Source: Pseudoxanthomonas daejeonensis (GTDB lineage Bacteria > Pseudomonadota > Gammaproteobacteria > Xanthomonadales > Xanthomonadaceae). Taken from it: 64,000 nucleotides of DNA. The position numbers and the translations under genes were made by a program. Below are positions 1 to 6,082 of the stretch, piece after piece. The notes under the pieces were generated by a model. It did not search any database. It saw nothing but the letters and a program-made list of their open reading frames with translations, and was not told the DNA's origin. Every line of letters begins with the position of its first letter. Position 1 is the first letter of the stretch. Location of the stretch: assembly GCF_010093205.1 (NCBI RefSeq), contig NZ_PDWN01000002.1, positions 248,001 through 312,000 of the forward strand, read 5' to 3'.

Positions 1-2649
1 CTGCGAGAGCTCGTTGCTTGCCCCGGTTTCAGAGAGGACGCTCGGCAGGCCGAAATAGGCGAACTCGAGCGTAGAGATGCTGAATCCCTCCAGCTGTGTC
101 GGGAGCAGCGCCACATGCGCGCGCGCAAACTCCTTCGACATCCGCCTGCGGCCCACTGACCCGGCCAGGGTGAGCGACCCGGATTCCACCAGTGGCGCCG
201 CCAGCACCTCAACGGCATGCCGCGCCTCGGCGTCCCCGCCCAGCGAACCGAGCATCACTAGGTGCGCGTCCGGGTAGCGCTTGACCACCTCAGCGAAGCT
301 CCGGATGACAAGCAGGTGGTTCTTCTGGAAATGCAGGTTCCCCGCGAACAGGAACCTAGGCGAGCCGATGGACTCGCGGCGATGCGCCGCTACCATAGGC
401 AGCGGTGGCCTGATGAAGCCGTGCGTGTTCAGGCCGTTGTTGATCAACGTGATGCTGCCCGGATCGAGCCCGAGCCGCTCGACGGAGTAGTCGCGCACGA
501 ATCCAGATACCGCGACGTACGCGTCGACGCTGCGCGAACGCAGGTGTGTGAACCAGTCGGATCCGACCTGCCAGTGATAGGCGTTGTGGAGCACCTCGAT
601 CACGCGCACGCCGTTGGCATGGATTGCGTCCAGGCCCGTGTAGGCATGGTGGGTGAAGCACACCTTCGCGCCAAGGCGCTCGGCCTCGGATAGCACTCCG
701 ACCGGGTCGTTCTTGCACGCCACCACTTCGATCCCGGCCTGCCGCGCCTCCTCGGCGATGTCGCCGAGATGGCCGAGCACGGCCACGGCGGGCCGGTACC
801 CCAGCCTGGTCATTTCGACGCAGAGGTCGAGAACCACACGCTCCAGGCCACCGCCCACGAAGTCCTGGACCAGGTGCAGGATGTCGGCCAGCGGCTCCTG
901 GGACTGCGGCTGCGACAGTGGCTCCACAGGTGGGCGGCGCACTTCATGCACCCGGGGCTCAATCGGAACGGCGGCCATACCGCTCGGCCGCATGCCCATC
1001 GATGCGGCCCGTCGGGCAGCGATCGAACGCTTGATCCGCCTGAGAAGCCGCGCGGCTTCCCGCAAGGGGGAGGTGATGCGCCAGCTCCTGCTGCGGTACA
1101 TGTCCGCCAGCTGTTGCTCGAGCGACTGGATGTGCGCCCCGCGCCCAGCCAATGCAGCGTCGCGGAACGCCAGCTCGATGCCGGACTGCCTTTGCTCGAT
1201 CTCGACCTGCCTGCGCAGATCTTCTATCCGGGCGCAGCGCTCGGCCAAGAGCACGGCGGCGGCCTCCAGTTCCGCGCCCAGCCGTTCGCGCTCGCTCGTC
1301 CAGTCGCGGGCCGCTACCTGCATCTCCTCGCGGCCCTCCTCCAGCTTCGACCTCGCCTGATCCAGCTCGGCCAGCAGGGCCGCCCTGTCCAAGAGCCCAT
1401 CCTGGACCTTCGTTTCGGCCTCGCTCGCGGAGCGGCGCGCTTCCTGGAGCTGCTCTTCGATCTCGCTCGCGGAGCGGCGTGCTTCCTGGAGCTGCGCTTC
1501 GGTCTGGCTCGCGGAGCGGCGCGACTCCTGGAGCTGTCCATCGAGGTCCATCTCGCGCAACTTCGATCCTTCGATCGCATCGCGCAATCCGTGCAGCTCC
1601 AGCGCAGCGGTGGCAGCGGACTCCTCGGCCGCGCGCGTCCTAGCCTGGAGGTCGGCCAATTGCTCGCCGATCGACCCGACCCGCTCGCGCATTTCCACCG
1701 AAACGGACTCGCTGATCAGCCAGGGAGCGATCGCCTGGACGGCGATTTCGAGCTGGCGCGCGTCCTTTTCCTCTCGCTCGGCCATGGCCCCGGTGAAAGC
1801 GGAGGTTCCGACGGACTGATTGGTGCGCGTGATGAGGACATGCCGCAGGAGGCGGCGCAGAGCCTCAGCCTCGCCCGCGGACTCCGGTCGCGACTCAGCG
1901 ACCGCCGCCAGTGCGCTGTCCAGCTCATGCGCCAGCCCTTCGACCTGCTCACGCACCGGCACGAACGTGCTAGGCGGCAGCAGCTCGATGTCCATGTCCG
2001 AAAGATGCAGGCCAAGCTCCCTGGCCCATTCCGGATCCACCCAGATCGCCAGCAGCTGCTCGCCCGGCCAGTTACAAGGCTCGTCGGAGCTCACGTCGCG
2101 TACGCGTACATGGGCGAGCACCTTGCCGTCTCCAAGCACCATCGGCACGTTGTCTGGATGGAAAGTCACGTGGTGCTCATCGATGCGCTGCCATTCGCGG
2201 AATGGCAACAGCAATGCGACCGCGCGTTGCGCCCGCGCCGATAAGGTCCCGATGACCTTCCACGGTTCGTGGAAGTGCTCCAGCGTATTGGAGCTGAAGA
2301 CCACATCGAAAGCCTCGCCTTCCGGATCCCTAGAGACCCAGTCCTCAGCGACGAACTTCTGGCCCGGGTAGTGCTGCCGGGCGTCCTCGATGGCGACTGG
2401 GGAGAAATCCACTCCGGTCATGTCGACGCCAGCCAGGTTGATGGCCAGCTCGTTGGTTCCATCGCCGAGCGCACAACCCCAGTCGCACCAGCTCAACCCT
2501 TCCGCCGAAGCGGCGATCAGCCATTTCGGCAGCAAGCTGAACGCAAGCGCACCGAAGAACCGGGATTGCGCGCGCCCTTGGCGCTCCTCCCAGTCCGACG
2601 TGAAGCGCGTATCCCAGTAATCCTTTGAATTGACCAAATTATCCGACAC
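1..2649 (-). CDS. Methyltransferase / coiled-coil / glycosyltransferase fusion, O-antigen locus (C-terminus off the window)
   Basis: The frame is open for 883 codons from a GTG at 2649 to the window edge, so the protein is larger than seen. Residues 1-240 form a class I SAM-dependent methyltransferase with the glycine motif GCALGDGT (58-65) and the post-II motif DVVFSSNTLEH (115-125). Residues about 270-510 are heptad-rich coiled coil with three near-identical 14-residue units. A linker of the SRSWRITSPLR type follows. From about 590 a GT4-like glycosyltransferase starts (LVQDFVGGGLERV), with FLFAGNLHFQKNHL at 766-779 and the E..GLPSVLSETG nucleotide-sugar region at the edge. The GTG overlaps the end of wzt by 11 bp, so the two are probably translated together. 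Role inferred: modification and elongation of the exported O-polysaccharide. The domains are certain, the exact sugar chemistry is not. Confidence 0.88.
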   Translation of the reverse strand, partial: MSDNLVNSKDYWDTRFTSDWEERQGRAQSRFFGALAFSLLPKWLIAASAEGLSWCDWGCALGDGTNELAINLAGVDMTGVDFSPVAIEDARQHYPGQKFVAEDWVSRDPEGEAFDVVFSSNTLEHFHEPWKVIGTLSARAQRAVALLLPFREWQRIDEHHVTFHPDNVPMVLGDGKVLAHVRVRDVSSDEPCNWPGEQLLAIWVDPEWARELGLHLSDMDIELLPPSTFVPVREQVEGLAHELDSALAAVAESRPESAGEAEALRRLLRHVLITRTNQSVGTSAFTGAMAEREEKDARQLEIAVQAIAPWLISESVSVEMRERVGSIGEQLADLQARTRAAEESAATAALELHGLRDAIEGSKLREMDLDGQLQESRRSASQTEAQLQEARRSASEIEEQLQEARRSASEAETKVQDGLLDRAALLAELDQARSKLEEGREEMQVAARDWTSERERLGAELEAAAVLLAERCARIEDLRRQVEIEQRQSGIELAFRDAALAGRGAHIQSLEQQLADMYRSRSWRITSPLREAARLLRRIKRSIAARRAASMGMRPSGMAAVPIEPRVHEVRRPPVEPLSQPQSQEPLADILHLVQDFVGGGLERVVLDLCVEMTRLGYRPAVAVLGHLGDIAEEARQAGIEVVACKNDPVGVLSEAERLGAKVCFTHHAYTGLDAIHANGVRVIEVLHNAYHWQVGSDWFTHLRSRSVDAYVAVSGFVRDYSVERLGLDPGSITLINNGLNTHGFIRPPLPMVAAHRRESIGSPRFLFAGNLHFQKNHLLVIRSFAEVVKRYPDAHLVMLGSLGGDAEARHAVEVLAAPLVESGSLTLAGSVGRRRMSKEFARAHVALLPTQLEGFSISTLEFAYFGLPSVLSETGASNELSQ
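1425..1536. repeat. 42-bp tandem repeat inside the coiled coil (about 2.7 units)
   Basis: Three units begin at 1425, 1467 and 1509, each with the core TCGCGGAGCGGCG on the plus strand and TCCTGGAGCTG further on. The third stops at about 1536. On the coding strand each unit encodes 14 residues (QLQEARRSAS plus four), which is two heptads, so gain or loss of a unit keeps the reading frame and the heptad phase. Confidence 0.85.
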
Positions 2650-4105
2650 GTGTCGACTCGCTGTAGCTGTGACTGATCCGTGGCTGATAAACGCCGAAGT
2701 ACCGCTTGTCGGCCACCGAGGAGAAGTAGCGGGCGCCTTCCAGATATTCGTAGTATTCGACTACTGGGCCGGTACGCCGCTCCAGCGCGGCGACGAGAAA
2801 ATACTTGCCTTCCACCAACCCATTCTCGAATTCGAATTCCACGGTGACTCGCTCGTCCGCAGACCAGTGCATGTCGCCGCCGCCGTCGCGGTCGTGGCTG
2901 CTGGATACGATAATGTCGGATCCCTTCAGGTCCTTTATCGAGAACGCGACTCCGAACGTCTCCGGCGAATACTCGTGCGGCAAGCTGAACCTGATACGTA
3001 TCCGGCAACACTCGCCCCAGCGCGCCAGATCCAACGGCTGGCCATCCCCATCCAGGATCTCCGCCGACTCGATCAGTCCGACCTGCTCGCCCCAATGGGA
3101 TACCGGCCGAGAATCTATGCCGGCTGGCGCAGACTCCACGACATGGCGCATCTGGTCGTATTCGTCCGGCGAGTGCACAGGGCTCCCATCCCCCAGGTCC
3201 GATACGCGCTCGGTCTCGGCCTCAGCCTCGGTCGGCTCCTCGGCGCCGGCCGCGACTTCCCCGACCTCCGGCCCGTCGCCCGCGGCATCCGCTGCGACGC
3301 CCTCGACCACAGGGCGGTCGGGCGAGGCGTCGGGGTCGTCGGCGAATATGGACTCCATGTAGCGCGACGTAACCTGCAGGACAGGTCCCAGCATCCTCAT
3401 CCTTCCCGAATCCAGCCAGAGCGCCCTCTGACAAAGCGTGCGAACGGTGGAGACGTCATGGCTGACGAACAATACCGACGCACCGCCGTCCTGAATCTGC
3501 CGTATCCGTTTCATGCACCGCGCTTGGAAGCGGGCATCGCCTACAGCCAGCGCCTCGTCGACTATCAGGACGTCGGCATCGACCGAGGTGGCGACCGCGA
3601 ACGCAAGGCGCACGAACATTCCGCTTGAGTACGTCTTGGTGGGCTCGTCGATGTACTGCCCGATGTCGGCGAATGCGGCGATTTCATCGAATCTCGACTC
3701 CACCGCATCCCGCGACAACCCCAGGAGCATTCCGTTTAGGAGTACGTTCTCGCGCCCGGTGAACTCCGGGTTGAACCCGGCACCGAGCTCCAGGAGTGCC
3801 GCAATGCGGCCGGATAACGAAAAATCGCCCTCGGTCGGCGACAGCGTCCCGCAGATCATCTGCAGGAGCGTGCTCTTGCCCGAACCATTGCGCCCGACGA
3901 TGCCCAGCGTCTCCCCGCGGACGACGTCAAAGTCGACATTCCGCACCGCCCAGACTTCTCGCCCCCTTGACTTCGCGCGCGACCCCAGCGCCCGCGACAC
4001 AGGACTAGTCAGCATATGCAGCAGCCGGTCGCTCGGCGAGGAGAATATCTCGAAGCGCTTGCCCAGATTGCTCGCCCGTATCACCGCCTCAGAGGACATC
4101 GGCAA
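2639..4105 (-). CDS. wzt: O-antigen ABC transporter ATP-binding protein with C-terminal sugar-binding domain (Wzt)
   Basis: This 488-residue ATPase drives export of undecaprenyl-linked O-polysaccharide across the inner membrane with Wzm. It has Walker A GRNGSGKST (71-79), the degenerate signature YSSGM typical of Wzt/TagH (159-163) and Walker B VLIVDEAL (179-186). After an acidic linker at about 255-300, a beta-rich C-terminal domain (about 330-470) resembles the carbohydrate-binding domain of long Wzt proteins, which recognises a modified chain end. The start overlaps the end of wzm, and an alternative Met lies six bases inside at 4099. The next gene downstream overlaps it too. Base composition is visibly less GC-rich than in the housekeeping genes to the right. 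Confidence 0.92.
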   Translation of the reverse strand: MPMSSEAVIRASNLGKRFEIFSSPSDRLLHMLTSPVSRALGSRAKSRGREVWAVRNVDFDVVRGETLGIVGRNGSGKSTLLQMICGTLSPTEGDFSLSGRIAALLELGAGFNPEFTGRENVLLNGMLLGLSRDAVESRFDEIAAFADIGQYIDEPTKTYSSGMFVRLAFAVATSVDADVLIVDEALAVGDARFQARCMKRIRQIQDGGASVLFVSHDVSTVRTLCQRALWLDSGRMRMLGPVLQVTSRYMESIFADDPDASPDRPVVEGVAADAAGDGPEVGEVAAGAEEPTEAEAETERVSDLGDGSPVHSPDEYDQMRHVVESAPAGIDSRPVSHWGEQVGLIESAEILDGDGQPLDLARWGECCRIRIRFSLPHEYSPETFGVAFSIKDLKGSDIIVSSSHDRDGGGDMHWSADERVTVEFEFENGLVEGKYFLVAALERRTGPVVEYYEYLEGARYFSSVADKRYFGVYQPRISHSYSESTRVG

Positions 4106-4895
4106 ACCCCTTACGGACGTAACGGAACCAAGCTAGACCGAGCACTGCGATCACCAGCGACGCAAGCATCTGCCAGCCGATCACCGACCAGTCCGGGAGC
4201 CGTCCAAAAACGAGTACTTCGCGGGCCGCGTCCACCACGCCTGTGATCGGATTCATCTCCACGATATGCCTATACCTCTCCGGGATTGCGGTGATCGGAT
4301 AGAAGACGGGGGACATGAACAGCAGGGCCATGGACAGCAGCGGCATCAGCTGACCGAGGTCACGGAGATAGACTCCGGTCGAAGCTAGGAACCACGATAC
4401 CCCGAGTGTAGCCAGCAACAGCGGGAATACCACCAGCGGGAAAAGCAGCGCCGTCCAAGGCACGCCACCCTGCACGAACAGCATTGCCATGAACAGGACC
4501 ACCAGACTCACCAGCATGTGAAAAATGGCAGCCAGCACGCACGAGACGGGCAGCACCTCAAGCGGAAAAACGACCTTTTTGACGAACTGCGGGTTGTTTG
4601 CGATCAGCGCCGGGGACTTCACCAGGCACTCGGAGAACATCCCGAATACGATCAGCCCGGCGAACAGGATCAGGGCGAACTCGGTCGTCGACTGCTGGCC
4701 GTCCGGAACCGTCCACTTCGAGCGGAAAATTACGCCGAATACGAACGTATAGACGCCGAGCATCAGCACTGGGAAGAAGAAAGACCAGGCGACCCCGACG
4801 GCCGAGCCCCGGTATCTTGAGTACACCTCGCGCTTGGCCATTTCCCACGCTAGCTTTCGGTTCGTCCACAGTCTTGAAACGAAATTCCCCTTCAT
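4089..4895 (-). CDS. wzm: O-antigen ABC transporter permease (Wzm)
   Basis: A 268-residue ABC-2 type permease that forms the membrane channel for Wzt. It has six predicted membrane segments, an amphipathic N-terminus (KLAWEMAKREVYSRYRGS) and the C-terminal motif MNPITGVVDAAREVLVFG that is common to polysaccharide ABC-2 permeases. The frame is open far upstream, but that part is the antisense of the metB-like gene. The ATG at 4895 is chosen because homologues start there and because it forms an ATGA overlap with the stop of the metB-like gene, behind AGCAGG. It is therefore probably translated by coupling from a transcript that starts in metB. Confidence 0.92.
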   Translation of the reverse strand: MKGNFVSRLWTNRKLAWEMAKREVYSRYRGSAVGVAWSFFFPVLMLGVYTFVFGVIFRSKWTVPDGQQSTTEFALILFAGLIVFGMFSECLVKSPALIANNPQFVKKVVFPLEVLPVSCVLAAIFHMLVSLVVLFMAMLFVQGGVPWTALLFPLVVFPLLLATLGVSWFLASTGVYLRDLGQLMPLLSMALLFMSPVFYPITAIPERYRHIVEMNPITGVVDAAREVLVFGRLPDWSVIGWQMLASLVIAVLGLAWFRYVRKGFADVL

Positions 4896-6082
4896 CGTAC
4901 CTGCTCCATTGCTCGTTCGAGATCCGACTTGAGATCCCCAACCCCCTCCACCCCCACACTCAACCGCACCAGGCCACCCGAAATCCCCAGCTTCTCCCGC
5001 CGCTCCACCGGCACCGACGCATGCGTCATCACCGCCGGATGGTTCACCAGGCTCTCCACGCCCCCCAGCGACTCCGCCAGGGTAAACAGCTCGGTCCGCT
5101 CGCAGAACCGCTTCGCCGCCTCGAATCCGCCCTTGAGCACCACCGAGACAATGCCGCCGAACCCCTGCATCTGCCTTGCAGCCAGTGCGTGCTGCGGATG
5201 CGACGCCAGGCCCGGATAGATCACCTTCTCCACCGCCGGCTGGCTCTGCAGCCACTGCGCCAGCGCCAGCGCATTCTCGTTGTGCGCGCGCATGCGCAGC
5301 GGCAGGGTCTTCAGGCCGCGCAGGGCGAGGAAGCTGTCGAACGGGCCCTGCACGGCGCCGATCGAATTCTGCAGGAACGCCATGCGTTCGCCGAGTTCGT
5401 CGTCGCCGGCCACGACCATGCCGCCGACCATGTCCGAATGGCCGTTGAGGTACTTGGTCGCCGAATGCATCACCAGGTGCGCGCCCAGCTCCAGCGGGCG
5501 CTGCACGATCGGCGAGGCGAAGGTGTTGTCGACCACCACCAGCAGGCCGTGCTTGCGCGCGATCTCCGCGACGGCGGCGATGTCGACGATCTTGAGCATC
5601 GGATTGGTCGGCGTCTCGATCCAGACCATGCGCGTCTTCGGCGTGATCGCGGCCTCGAACGCGGCCAGGTCGCACAGGTCGACGAAGCTGAAATCCAGGC
5701 CGGCGCTGCGTCGGCGCACGCGCTCGAACAGGCGGTAGCTTCCGCCGTAGAGGTCGTCCATCGCCACGATGTGGTCGCCGCTGTTCAGCAGCTCCAGCAC
5801 GGTCGAGGTCGCGGCCATGCCCGAGGCGAAGGCGAAGCCGCGGGTGCCACCTTCCAGCACCGCCACGCAGCGCTCGTAGGCGAAGCGGGTCGGGTTGTGG
5901 GTACGCGAGTACTCGAAACCCTGGTGCTCGCCCGGGCTGCTCTGGGCGTAGGTCGATGTGGCGTAGATCGGCGGCATCACCGCCCCGGTGCTGGGGTCCG
6001 GTGCCTGGCCGCCGTGGATCGCCAGGGTCGCAAGCGACAGCTTGCGCCCGTCCGGGGCGGCGTGGGTGGGCTGGTCCGTCAT
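4892..6082 (-). CDS. metB: Cystathionine gamma-synthase / gamma-lyase family PLP enzyme
   Basis: A full-length 396-residue member of the Cys/Met metabolism PLP family. The PLP lysine is K210 in HSATKYLNGHSD; the phosphate-binding loop is FASGMAAT (85-92) and ETPTNP lies at 156-161. Family members make cystathionine from O-acetyl- or O-succinylhomoserine (MetB) or cleave it to cysteine (CGL). The cystathionine beta-synthase gene just upstream favours the lyase, i.e. reverse transsulfuration from homocysteine to cysteine. Xanthomonas homologues are annotated either way. AGAGGAAGG precedes the ATG. The gene is the conserved edge of the LPS locus in Xanthomonas, and its stop overlaps the start of wzm. 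Confidence 0.92.
   Translation of the reverse strand: MTDQPTHAAPDGRKLSLATLAIHGGQAPDPSTGAVMPPIYATSTYAQSSPGEHQGFEYSRTHNPTRFAYERCVAVLEGGTRGFAFASGMAATSTVLELLNSGDHIVAMDDLYGGSYRLFERVRRRSAGLDFSFVDLCDLAAFEAAITPKTRMVWIETPTNPMLKIVDIAAVAEIARKHGLLVVVDNTFASPIVQRPLELGAHLVMHSATKYLNGHSDMVGGMVVAGDDELGERMAFLQNSIGAVQGPFDSFLALRGLKTLPLRMRAHNENALALAQWLQSQPAVEKVIYPGLASHPQHALAARQMQGFGGIVSVVLKGGFEAAKRFCERTELFTLAESLGGVESLVNHPAVMTHASVPVERREKLGISGGLVRLSVGVEGVGDLKSDLERAMEQVR

What the first reader, a model, noticed from the sequence alone, without database searches (positions are those of the whole stretch)
1..2649. One polypeptide joins methyltransferase, coiled coil and glycosyltransferase next to a Wzt with a sugar-binding tail
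In E. coli O9a, the capping enzyme WbdD carries a methyltransferase and a long coiled coil that acts as a ruler for the separate polymerase WbdA; the capped chain is then recognised by the C-terminal domain of Wzt (established knowledge). Here a methyltransferase, a coiled coil and a GT4 enzyme are in a single chain that overlaps wzt, and this Wzt has the extra C-terminal domain. I infer a fused terminator-ruler-transferase that caps and measures O-antigen. Fusions of this type are often annotated only as glycosyltransferase.
Basis: partly seen in the sequence, partly recalled or inferred. Interest (0 to 1): 0.75.

Follow-up and report, generated by a model that had tools for sequence, protein, structure and literature searches.

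The report
Sugar-chain capping enzyme with repeat-built ruler
A bacterium carries one long protein that probably builds, measures and caps a surface sugar chain before export; proteins of this kind are already known, but the measuring rod here is encoded by a repeated 42-base DNA unit, which suggests that its length can change easily.

Summary
Window 1-2649(-) is the first 883 residues of a 976-residue ORF: methyltransferase (MT), proline-free helical linker, GT4 glycosyltransferase. It overlaps by 11 bases a wzt with a Wzt_C domain, in a metB-etfA-type LPS locus. "Cap, ruler and transferase in one chain" is the best explanation but not new in kind: K. pneumoniae O7 ORF6, O12 WbbB and Geobacillus WsaE are characterised fusions. 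Of 56 loci with this MT family, 38 have it directly after a wzt with the C-terminal domain, 33 of them fused to GT modules. In two Stenotrophomonas-group genomes MT-coil and GT4 are separate proteins at the same locus. MT and exporter co-diversify; GT modules do not. No kinase was found. New: the linker is encoded by a 42-bp (two-heptad) tandem array. Arrays occur in 20 of 71 relatives' linkers, in none of their MT or GT parts; one 99.5%-identical pair differs by one 21-bp heptad unit. This suggests, without proving, a length-adjustable ruler. No control with unrelated coil genes was made.

The parts
1..2649 (-). MT - coiled coil - GT4 fusion, first 883 of 976 residues (GTG start at 2649; stop lies 282 bases beyond window base 1)
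1996..2634 (-). methyltransferase domain, residues 6-218 (DWGCALGDG SAM loop; N7, Y11, W12, R15, E158, H159 invariant in 22 aligned relatives)
1093..1995 (-). helical linker / predicted coiled-coil ruler, residues 219-519 (proline-free from 310)
1400..1536 (-). 42-bp tandem array, 3.3 copies, 86% match, in frame: 14 aa = 2 heptads (QLQEARRSASEIEE)
1015..1092 (-). SRSWRITSPLR motif and basic amphipathic stretch at the end of the coil, residues 520-545
1..882 (-). GT4 glycosyltransferase domain (residues 590 on; last 93 residues outside window)
2639..4105 (-). wzt, ABC transporter ATP-binding subunit, 488 aa
2696..3097 (-). Wzt_C domain (residues 337-470)
4089..4889 (-). wzm, ABC transporter permease
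4892..6082 (-). metB-like gene (named by my reading of the translation), flank of the xanthomonad LPS locus
   Evidence: locus border as described in PMC2238763

Best explanation
The 976-aa protein is a fused O-polysaccharide terminator-ruler-transferase of an ABC-transporter-dependent LPS locus. The C-terminal GT4, with the neighbouring glycosyltransferases, extends the lipid-linked chain near the membrane. The SRSWRIT/amphipathic segment holds that end at the membrane. The coiled coil (about 210 proline-free residues, roughly 30 nm if fully helical) holds the MT away from it. Only a chain long enough to reach the MT is methylated at its tip. Methylation stops growth and makes the end recognisable to the Wzt C-terminal domain, which admits it to export. 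The fusion replaces the recruitment that joins separate terminator and polymerase elsewhere (WbdD-WbdA; Stenotrophomonas MT-coil plus GT4). Shown here: architecture, gene context, homologues, unfused homologues at the same site, no detectable kinase, tandem-repeat coding of the ruler. Inferred: methyl cap, length control, membrane attachment, recognition by Wzt.
For: Domains and context. Co-occurrence: 38 of 56 loci with a full-length MT of this family have it directly after a same-strand wzt with CTD, 33 fused and 5 not (of the 5, L065 is cut by the contig end and L020 is interrupted inside its array). Co-diversification with the exporter but not with the fused GT4 module (38 and 19 loci). 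Unfused homologues at the same metB site: Wzm 39%, Wzt 45%, MT-coil 39%, GT4 34% on a 675-aa protein, the two other GTs 35% and 38%. Coil-end motif: 40 of 71 loci (37 of 66 distinct) with 40 hits against 1.9 expected from other six-frame ORFs (two of the hits, in L035 and L058, are not at the coil end); a stricter form in 36 of 66 distinct loci; WbdD has SRSWRMT at 592. WbdD calibration: 132 residues x 1.485 A (rise recalled) = 196 A against about 200 A in print. The MT profile reaches WbdD's MT at 33 bits. Methyl-only terminators are in print: O8 WbdD, WsaE, E. coli O101 MT.
Against: 7 of 56 loci pair the MT protein with a Wzt without CTD, 4 have wzt with CTD elsewhere in the locus, 7 show no wzt in the held stretch, which in L038 and L045 is cut by the contig start. 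Two relatives (G146, G039) have MT-coil near recJ and their wzt elsewhere in the genome. The MT-CTD link is weak once NBD distance is removed (partial r 0.17, 24 of 499 permutations as high) and no stronger than MT-Wzm (0.26, 17 of 499), so it may reflect linkage. The window's own GT4 is of another group and is not in the 19-locus GT comparison. A second MT gene could be the capping enzyme. Heptad periodicity is clear in only part of the linker. Only one GT module is fused, against two in O7, O12 and WsaE. WbdD is not named among the 60 shown of 168 PDB matches of the MT profile, and the Wzt CTD profile does not find the O9 Wzt CTD. No structure model was possible.
Confidence: 0.72

Rival explanations
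1. The MT decorates sugars within the chain (not the end) and the coil only oligomerises the enzyme; fusion merely keeps two enzymes together.
For: No biochemical test of this family was found or made; some homologues go with a Wzt without CTD (7 of 56) or are unlinked to wzt.
Against: MT distances follow wzm-wzt while those of the fused GT4 module do not; the coil-end motif is shared with WbdD; within 3.6 kb of one near-identical pair the only internal length change is a whole heptad in the coil.
Confidence: 0.15
2. The separate 270-aa methyltransferase (L003:1828-2640) makes the terminal cap and the fused MT does something else.
For: It lies in the same operon.
Against: It matched none of the six Stenotrophomonas-group proteins compared, which fill that locus from wzm to wecB without room for another gene, while the other five wzm-to-GT products of the window locus each matched; the place directly after wzt belongs to the fused MT.
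Confidence: 0.08
3. The tandem array is a neutral by-product of slippage in coil-coding DNA, without use in chain-length variation.
For: Heptad periodicity itself favours in-frame duplication; tandem coil repeats are known in other surface proteins (recalled). Only one length-variant pair was found, and that array (L094) is matched by 4 of 60 synonymous shuffles. 46 of 66 distinct loci have no array at the threshold used. No set of unrelated coiled-coil genes was run as a control.
Against: E. coli wbdD, a gene of the same proposed role, has no array in its coil and is 2127 bp in each of the 32 full-length rows listed, out of 263 matching genomes; no array in the MT or GT parts. None of this shows function.
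Confidence: 0.45

Closest known systems
Klebsiella pneumoniae O7 ORF6 (PMC11231755: abstract, passages, first part of the Discussion read)
   Same: One chain: N-terminal MT, central coiled coil, C-terminal GT modules, in a locus with wzm and wzt; phosphorylates and methylates a repeat-unit mimic in vitro
   Different: O7 has a 223-aa kinase domain, a CBM-like fold and two GT2 modules; ours has no detectable kinase and one GT4
Geobacillus stearothermophilus WsaE (passages of PMC2943079 and PMC3898925 read)
   Same: N-terminal MT fused to glycosyltransferase modules, wzm-wzt-wsaE with overlapping codons, methyl-only cap
   Different: Two rhamnosyltransferase modules; S-layer glycan; coil not mentioned in the passages seen; its sequence was not compared here
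K. pneumoniae O12 WbbB (as described in PMC11231755)
   Same: Terminator, coil and polymerase in one protein
   Different: Terminator is a Kdo transferase; two polymerase GT modules
E. coli O9a WbdD + WbdA (passages of PMC3482155 and PMC5082667; gene read from E. coli HS)
   Same: MT first, coil, SRSWR(M/I)T at coil end, gene next to a wzt with an extra C-terminal part
   Different: WbdD has a kinase and no GT; polymerase separate; coil without DNA tandem array
E. coli O101 MT (passages of PMC13168486 read, abstract in part)
   Same: MT plus coil in a locus with wzm-wzt; intact MT needed for O-methylation
   Different: Not described as fused to a GT; sequence not compared here
NeuO heptad VNTR (passages of PMC3046976 read)
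   Same: Slippage-prone DNA repeat encoding protein heptads in a polysaccharide-modifying enzyme
   Different: 7-nt unit at the 5' end, on/off switching, heptads disordered in the crystal; not a ruler

Membership tests
Fused terminator-ruler-polymerase (O7 ORF6, O12 WbbB, WsaE) | N-terminal terminator catalytic domain | tested here: met
   MT models within residues 48-139; activity untested
Fused terminator-ruler-polymerase (O7 ORF6, O12 WbbB, WsaE) | coiled coil between terminator and GT | tested here: inconclusive
Fused terminator-ruler-polymerase (O7 ORF6, O12 WbbB, WsaE) | C-terminal glycosyltransferase module(s) in the same chain | tested here: met
   GT4 models from residue 600 of 976; one module, not two
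Fused terminator-ruler-polymerase (O7 ORF6, O12 WbbB, WsaE) | adds a terminal group that stops elongation | not testable with these tools
   needs biochemistry
WbdD O9a type | kinase domain between MT and coil | tested here: not met
   No APH/Pkinase match in ours; WbdD gives both
WbdD type (including methyl-only O8) | MT plus coil gene directly after wzt | tested here: met
   11-base overlap; E. coli HS order wzm-wzt-wbdD-wbdA
WbdD type (including methyl-only O8) | separate polymerase recruited by the coil's C-terminal part | tested here: not met
   GT4 is fused; the separate state is seen in the Stenotrophomonas group
O-antigen ABC exporter with carbohydrate-binding C-terminal domain | Wzt NBD plus Wzt_C domain, Wzm partner | tested here: met
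   PF00005, PF14524, PF01061
O-antigen ABC exporter with carbohydrate-binding C-terminal domain | C-terminal domain binds the capped end | not testable with these tools
   needs binding assay

The most novel reading that the evidence does not exclude
The ruler is built as a variable-number tandem repeat whose unit is a whole number of heptads (21 or 42 bp). Slippage or unequal exchange adds or removes units in frame, moving the terminator nearer to or farther from the polymerase without breaking the enzyme, so lineages tune O-polysaccharide length in steps of about 1-2 nm of coil: a heritable, gradual length switch in the same gene that builds and caps the chain.
Probability: 0.33. Interest if true: 0.75.

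Novelty: new variant of a known kind. Interest (0 to 1): 0.5.

Why it matters
The fusion extends a characterised kind to a widespread family (record titles include Proteobacteria, Firmicutes, candidate phyla and archaea), with fused and split versions at one locus, so fusion and recruitment can be compared directly. If the heptad arrays vary in populations, natural alleles would supply a ready-made ruler-length series to test how coil length sets glycan length, and a new route of stepwise surface variation.

Tried and rejected
Rejected or left: (1) WbdD-like methyl-phosphate cap: no kinase match. (2) A specific MT to Wzt-CTD coevolution signal: partial correlations are weak and not specific; kept only as co-diversification with the exporter as a whole. 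(3) Copy-number differences among relatives: searches at E 1e-40 of the genus of G198 (Pseudomonas by L025's title; 2 of 398 genomes with a match), the family of G209 (5 of 200), the genus of G202 (2 of 40), of G206 (4 of 91), of G201 (1 of 175) and the family of G203 (8 of 398), each count including the query's own genome, gave one near-identical pair with different length (L093/L094) and one identical pair (L100/L101). (4) Plasmids: 1 record. (5) E. coli O101 MT: the locus reached through a wbdD fragment was another one; not pursued. (6) Structure prediction: not available; fold search therefore not used. (7) A profile search of 237 genomes of the own family at E 1e-15 gave 5, own included, and none of the 11 other same-genus genomes: patchy distribution.

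Rows dropped before counts: 13 of 69 loci without a full-length MT. In the 71 loci five are records seen twice (L083, L090, L082, L099, L103; 100% identical) and L100/L101 are identical to each other; none of the five carries a counted array, so 20 of 71 loci is 20 of 66 distinct loci or 19 of 65 distinct sequences. In one search, 16 of 20 periods are multiples of 21 (not L021, L028, L088, L097); 14 of 20 arrays exceeded all 60 synonymous shuffles, the window's among them; L021, L028, L051, L067, L094 and L100 were reached by 1 to 5 of 60. Unit comparison was given 12 of the 20 array loci, 11 of them with two or more whole units. The loci were collected by a pattern search built on five seed sequences, so counts describe that sample. 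Gene names metB, wecB, etf, rfb and manC rest on my reading of the translations, not on a search.

Full report
WHAT IS THERE. The window is G000:C22:248001-312000. Its family group holds two genomes whose contigs match Lysobacter changpingensis and L. gilvus records by length, so it is a Lysobacter/Xanthomonas-type bacterium by inference. The reported ORF starts at window 2649 on the minus strand and runs off the window; in the genome it is 976 residues without an internal stop. Pfam places MT models within residues 48-139 and GT4 models within 600-889; no kinase model matches, whereas the same library finds APH and Pkinase models in E. coli WbdD. wzt overlaps by 11 bases and carries Wzt_C; wzm and a metB-like gene follow. 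On the other side come a 365-aa GT-like protein (weak Pfam match only), a 270-aa MT, a 424-aa GT, an 823-aa sulfatase-family protein, wecB and etf-like genes (some names by my reading). This is the metB-etfA LPS locus described for xanthomonads (passages of PMC2238763). Third-position G+C along the fused gene (0.69-0.88 per 75 codons) resembles that of its neighbours (0.72-0.85).

IS THE FUSION REAL AND COMMON? A scan with the MT family returned 66 loci. Together with the window locus and two loci from whole-genome search, 56 of 69 have a full-length MT of the family: 38 directly after a same-strand wzt with C-terminal domain (33 fused to GT modules, 5 not, of which L065 is cut by its contig end and L020 interrupted in its array), 4 with such a wzt elsewhere in the locus, 7 with a Wzt lacking that domain, 7 with no wzt in the held stretch. 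The fused part is often a GT4-like module followed by a GT2; the window's GT4 is of another group. In its own family the gene is rare: 5 of 237 genomes, 0 of 11 other genomes of the genus.

A NATURAL UNFUSED COUNTERPART. In two genomes of the Stenotrophomonas group (G930, G879; genus of L014's genome) the same metB site carries wzm, wzt with CTD, MT-coil (377/384 aa, ending SHSWRLTAPFRSIRRLF), a GT (35% to the window's 365-aa protein), a 675-aa protein whose residues 305-641 match the window's GT4 at 34%, and a GT matching the 424-aa GT at 38%. So the window protein joins two proteins that are separate in a related bacterium. Bordetella loci L017 and L019 also have MT-coil and a GT4-bearing protein apart.

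MODULE EXCHANGE. Over 38 loci, MT distances correlate with Wzt CTD (0.65), Wzt NBD (0.71) and Wzm (0.69). Over 19 loci with a comparable GT4 module (the window's not among them), that module correlates with none (MT 0.09, CTD -0.03, NBD -0.06, Wzm 0.06), although it is in the MT's own chain. The MT thus behaves as part of the export machinery, as a cap made for a transporter checkpoint should. The test does not single out the CTD: partial correlations given NBD are 0.17 for MT-CTD, 0.26 for MT-Wzm and, in the 19-locus set, 0.21 for MT-GT4 (67 of 499 permutations as high). The GT comparison may also suffer from saturation.

THE RULER. WbdD's coil from residue 460 to its SRSWRMT motif (592) is 132 residues, 196 A as ideal helix (rise recalled), in line with about 200 A in print (PMC5082667 passages). 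The window protein has SRSWRIT at 520 and no proline from 310 to 519, about 30 nm. Among 36 distinct loci with the strict motif the MT-to-motif distance runs from 75 residues to the window's 303, leaving aside L058, whose motif at 570 lies beyond its GT match. The motif is strongly enriched (40 of 71 loci, 37 of 66 distinct; 1.9 hits expected). That it is the membrane end is inferred from WbdD, whose C-terminal region is described as membrane-associated.

THE NEW OBSERVATION. The coil is encoded in part by a 42-bp array, 3.3 copies (window 1400-1536), the stronger of two arrays in the 64-kb window (scores 197 and 73). Among 71 loci (66 distinct), arrays of period 15 or more and score 70 or more occur in 20 linkers (49.1 kb) and in no MT (45.1 kb) or GT part (76.8 kb); 16 of 20 periods are whole heptads; 14 of 20 score above all 60 synonymous shuffles, hence repetition of DNA beyond that of protein. 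MT and GT parts are not coils, so this control does not say how common such arrays are in other coil genes. In most of the 11 genes with two or more whole units compared, units are more alike within a gene than between genes (third positions: window 0.90 within, 0.10-0.64 against others; L031 1.00; L088 0.94 and L097 0.86 within, 0.70 between); L060 is an exception (0.56 within, up to 0.57 with others). This is the mark of recent or continuing turnover. L093 and L094 are 99.5% identical over 3.6 kb and their only internal length difference there is one 21-bp heptad unit in the array (a second 21-bp gap is at the edge of the stretch). Over 16 kb the two loci are 97.5% identical with 8 gap openings, so other length changes exist outside this gene. 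By contrast E. coli wbdD has no array in its coil and each of the 32 full-length rows listed, of 263 matching genomes, has the same 2127 bp. I found no paper on such arrays in glycan rulers in three searches of the open library. NeuO is a partial precedent for heptad repeats.

HOW IT MOST LIKELY WORKS. As in Best explanation. Known steps from others' work: coil length sets chain length in WbdD, and the cap is read by the transporter's binding module (passages of PMC11231755, PMC3482155, PMC5082667). Methyl-only capping is reported for O8 WbdD and WsaE and indicated for E. coli O101. What this family adds is fusion of a methyl-only terminator to a GT through a repeat-coded coil.

WHAT IS NOT KNOWN. 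No structure model could be made. Whether the array varies within the window's own species is unknown. Which sugar is capped is unknown; rfbA, rfbB and rfbD-like genes nearby (my reading) make rhamnose plausible only.

VERDICT. Observation confirmed; interpretation plausible but not new in kind; the repeat-coded ruler raises the interest moderately.

Noticed in passing
window 1400-1536: 42-bp in-frame tandem array encoding two-heptad units in the coiled coil; arrays also in 19 other of the 71 loci examined.
   Followed up: yes
L109 (7733-8866) and L110 (7654-8808): Near-identical MT-coil genes in two Stenotrophomonas-group genomes that differ by one 21-bp heptad unit.
   Followed up: yes
L020 2344-5485: In a Rugosibacter MAG the MT-coil ORF ends in a 21-bp array and a GT4-GT2 ORF starts 50 bases later, still with the repeat: an interruption in the array or an assembly error.
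   Followed up: no
L047 7198-9915; L050 7209-9935: The glycosyltransferase protein just upstream of an unfused MT-coil has its own N-terminal coil-like stretch and SSSWR/SSSWK motif, as if two coils pair.
   Followed up: partly
L011 9040-10632 (-); L012 9227-11614 (-): MT-coil proteins near recJ with no wzt nearby; a Wzt-like match lies elsewhere in both genomes.
   Followed up: partly
L003 1828-2640 (-): Second, 270-aa methyltransferase gene in the same operon, without a match among the six Stenotrophomonas-group proteins compared.
   Followed up: partly
L002 13160-15631 (-): 823-aa sulfatase-family membrane protein with a weak LTA-synthase match at the end of the LPS operon, possibly a phosphoglycerol transferase for the polysaccharide.
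   Followed up: no
L100 and L101: 3648 bp with the MT gene are identical in two different genomes of one family: recent transfer or near-duplicate assemblies.
   Followed up: no
Xanthomonas BXO8 and Xac 306 LPS loci (PMC2238763): ORF3 and ORF4, which the authors thought might be a frameshifted WsaE homologue, may be the natural split state; ORF3 is 386 aa in one and 563 aa in the other, possibly a ruler-length difference (sequences not seen).
   Followed up: no
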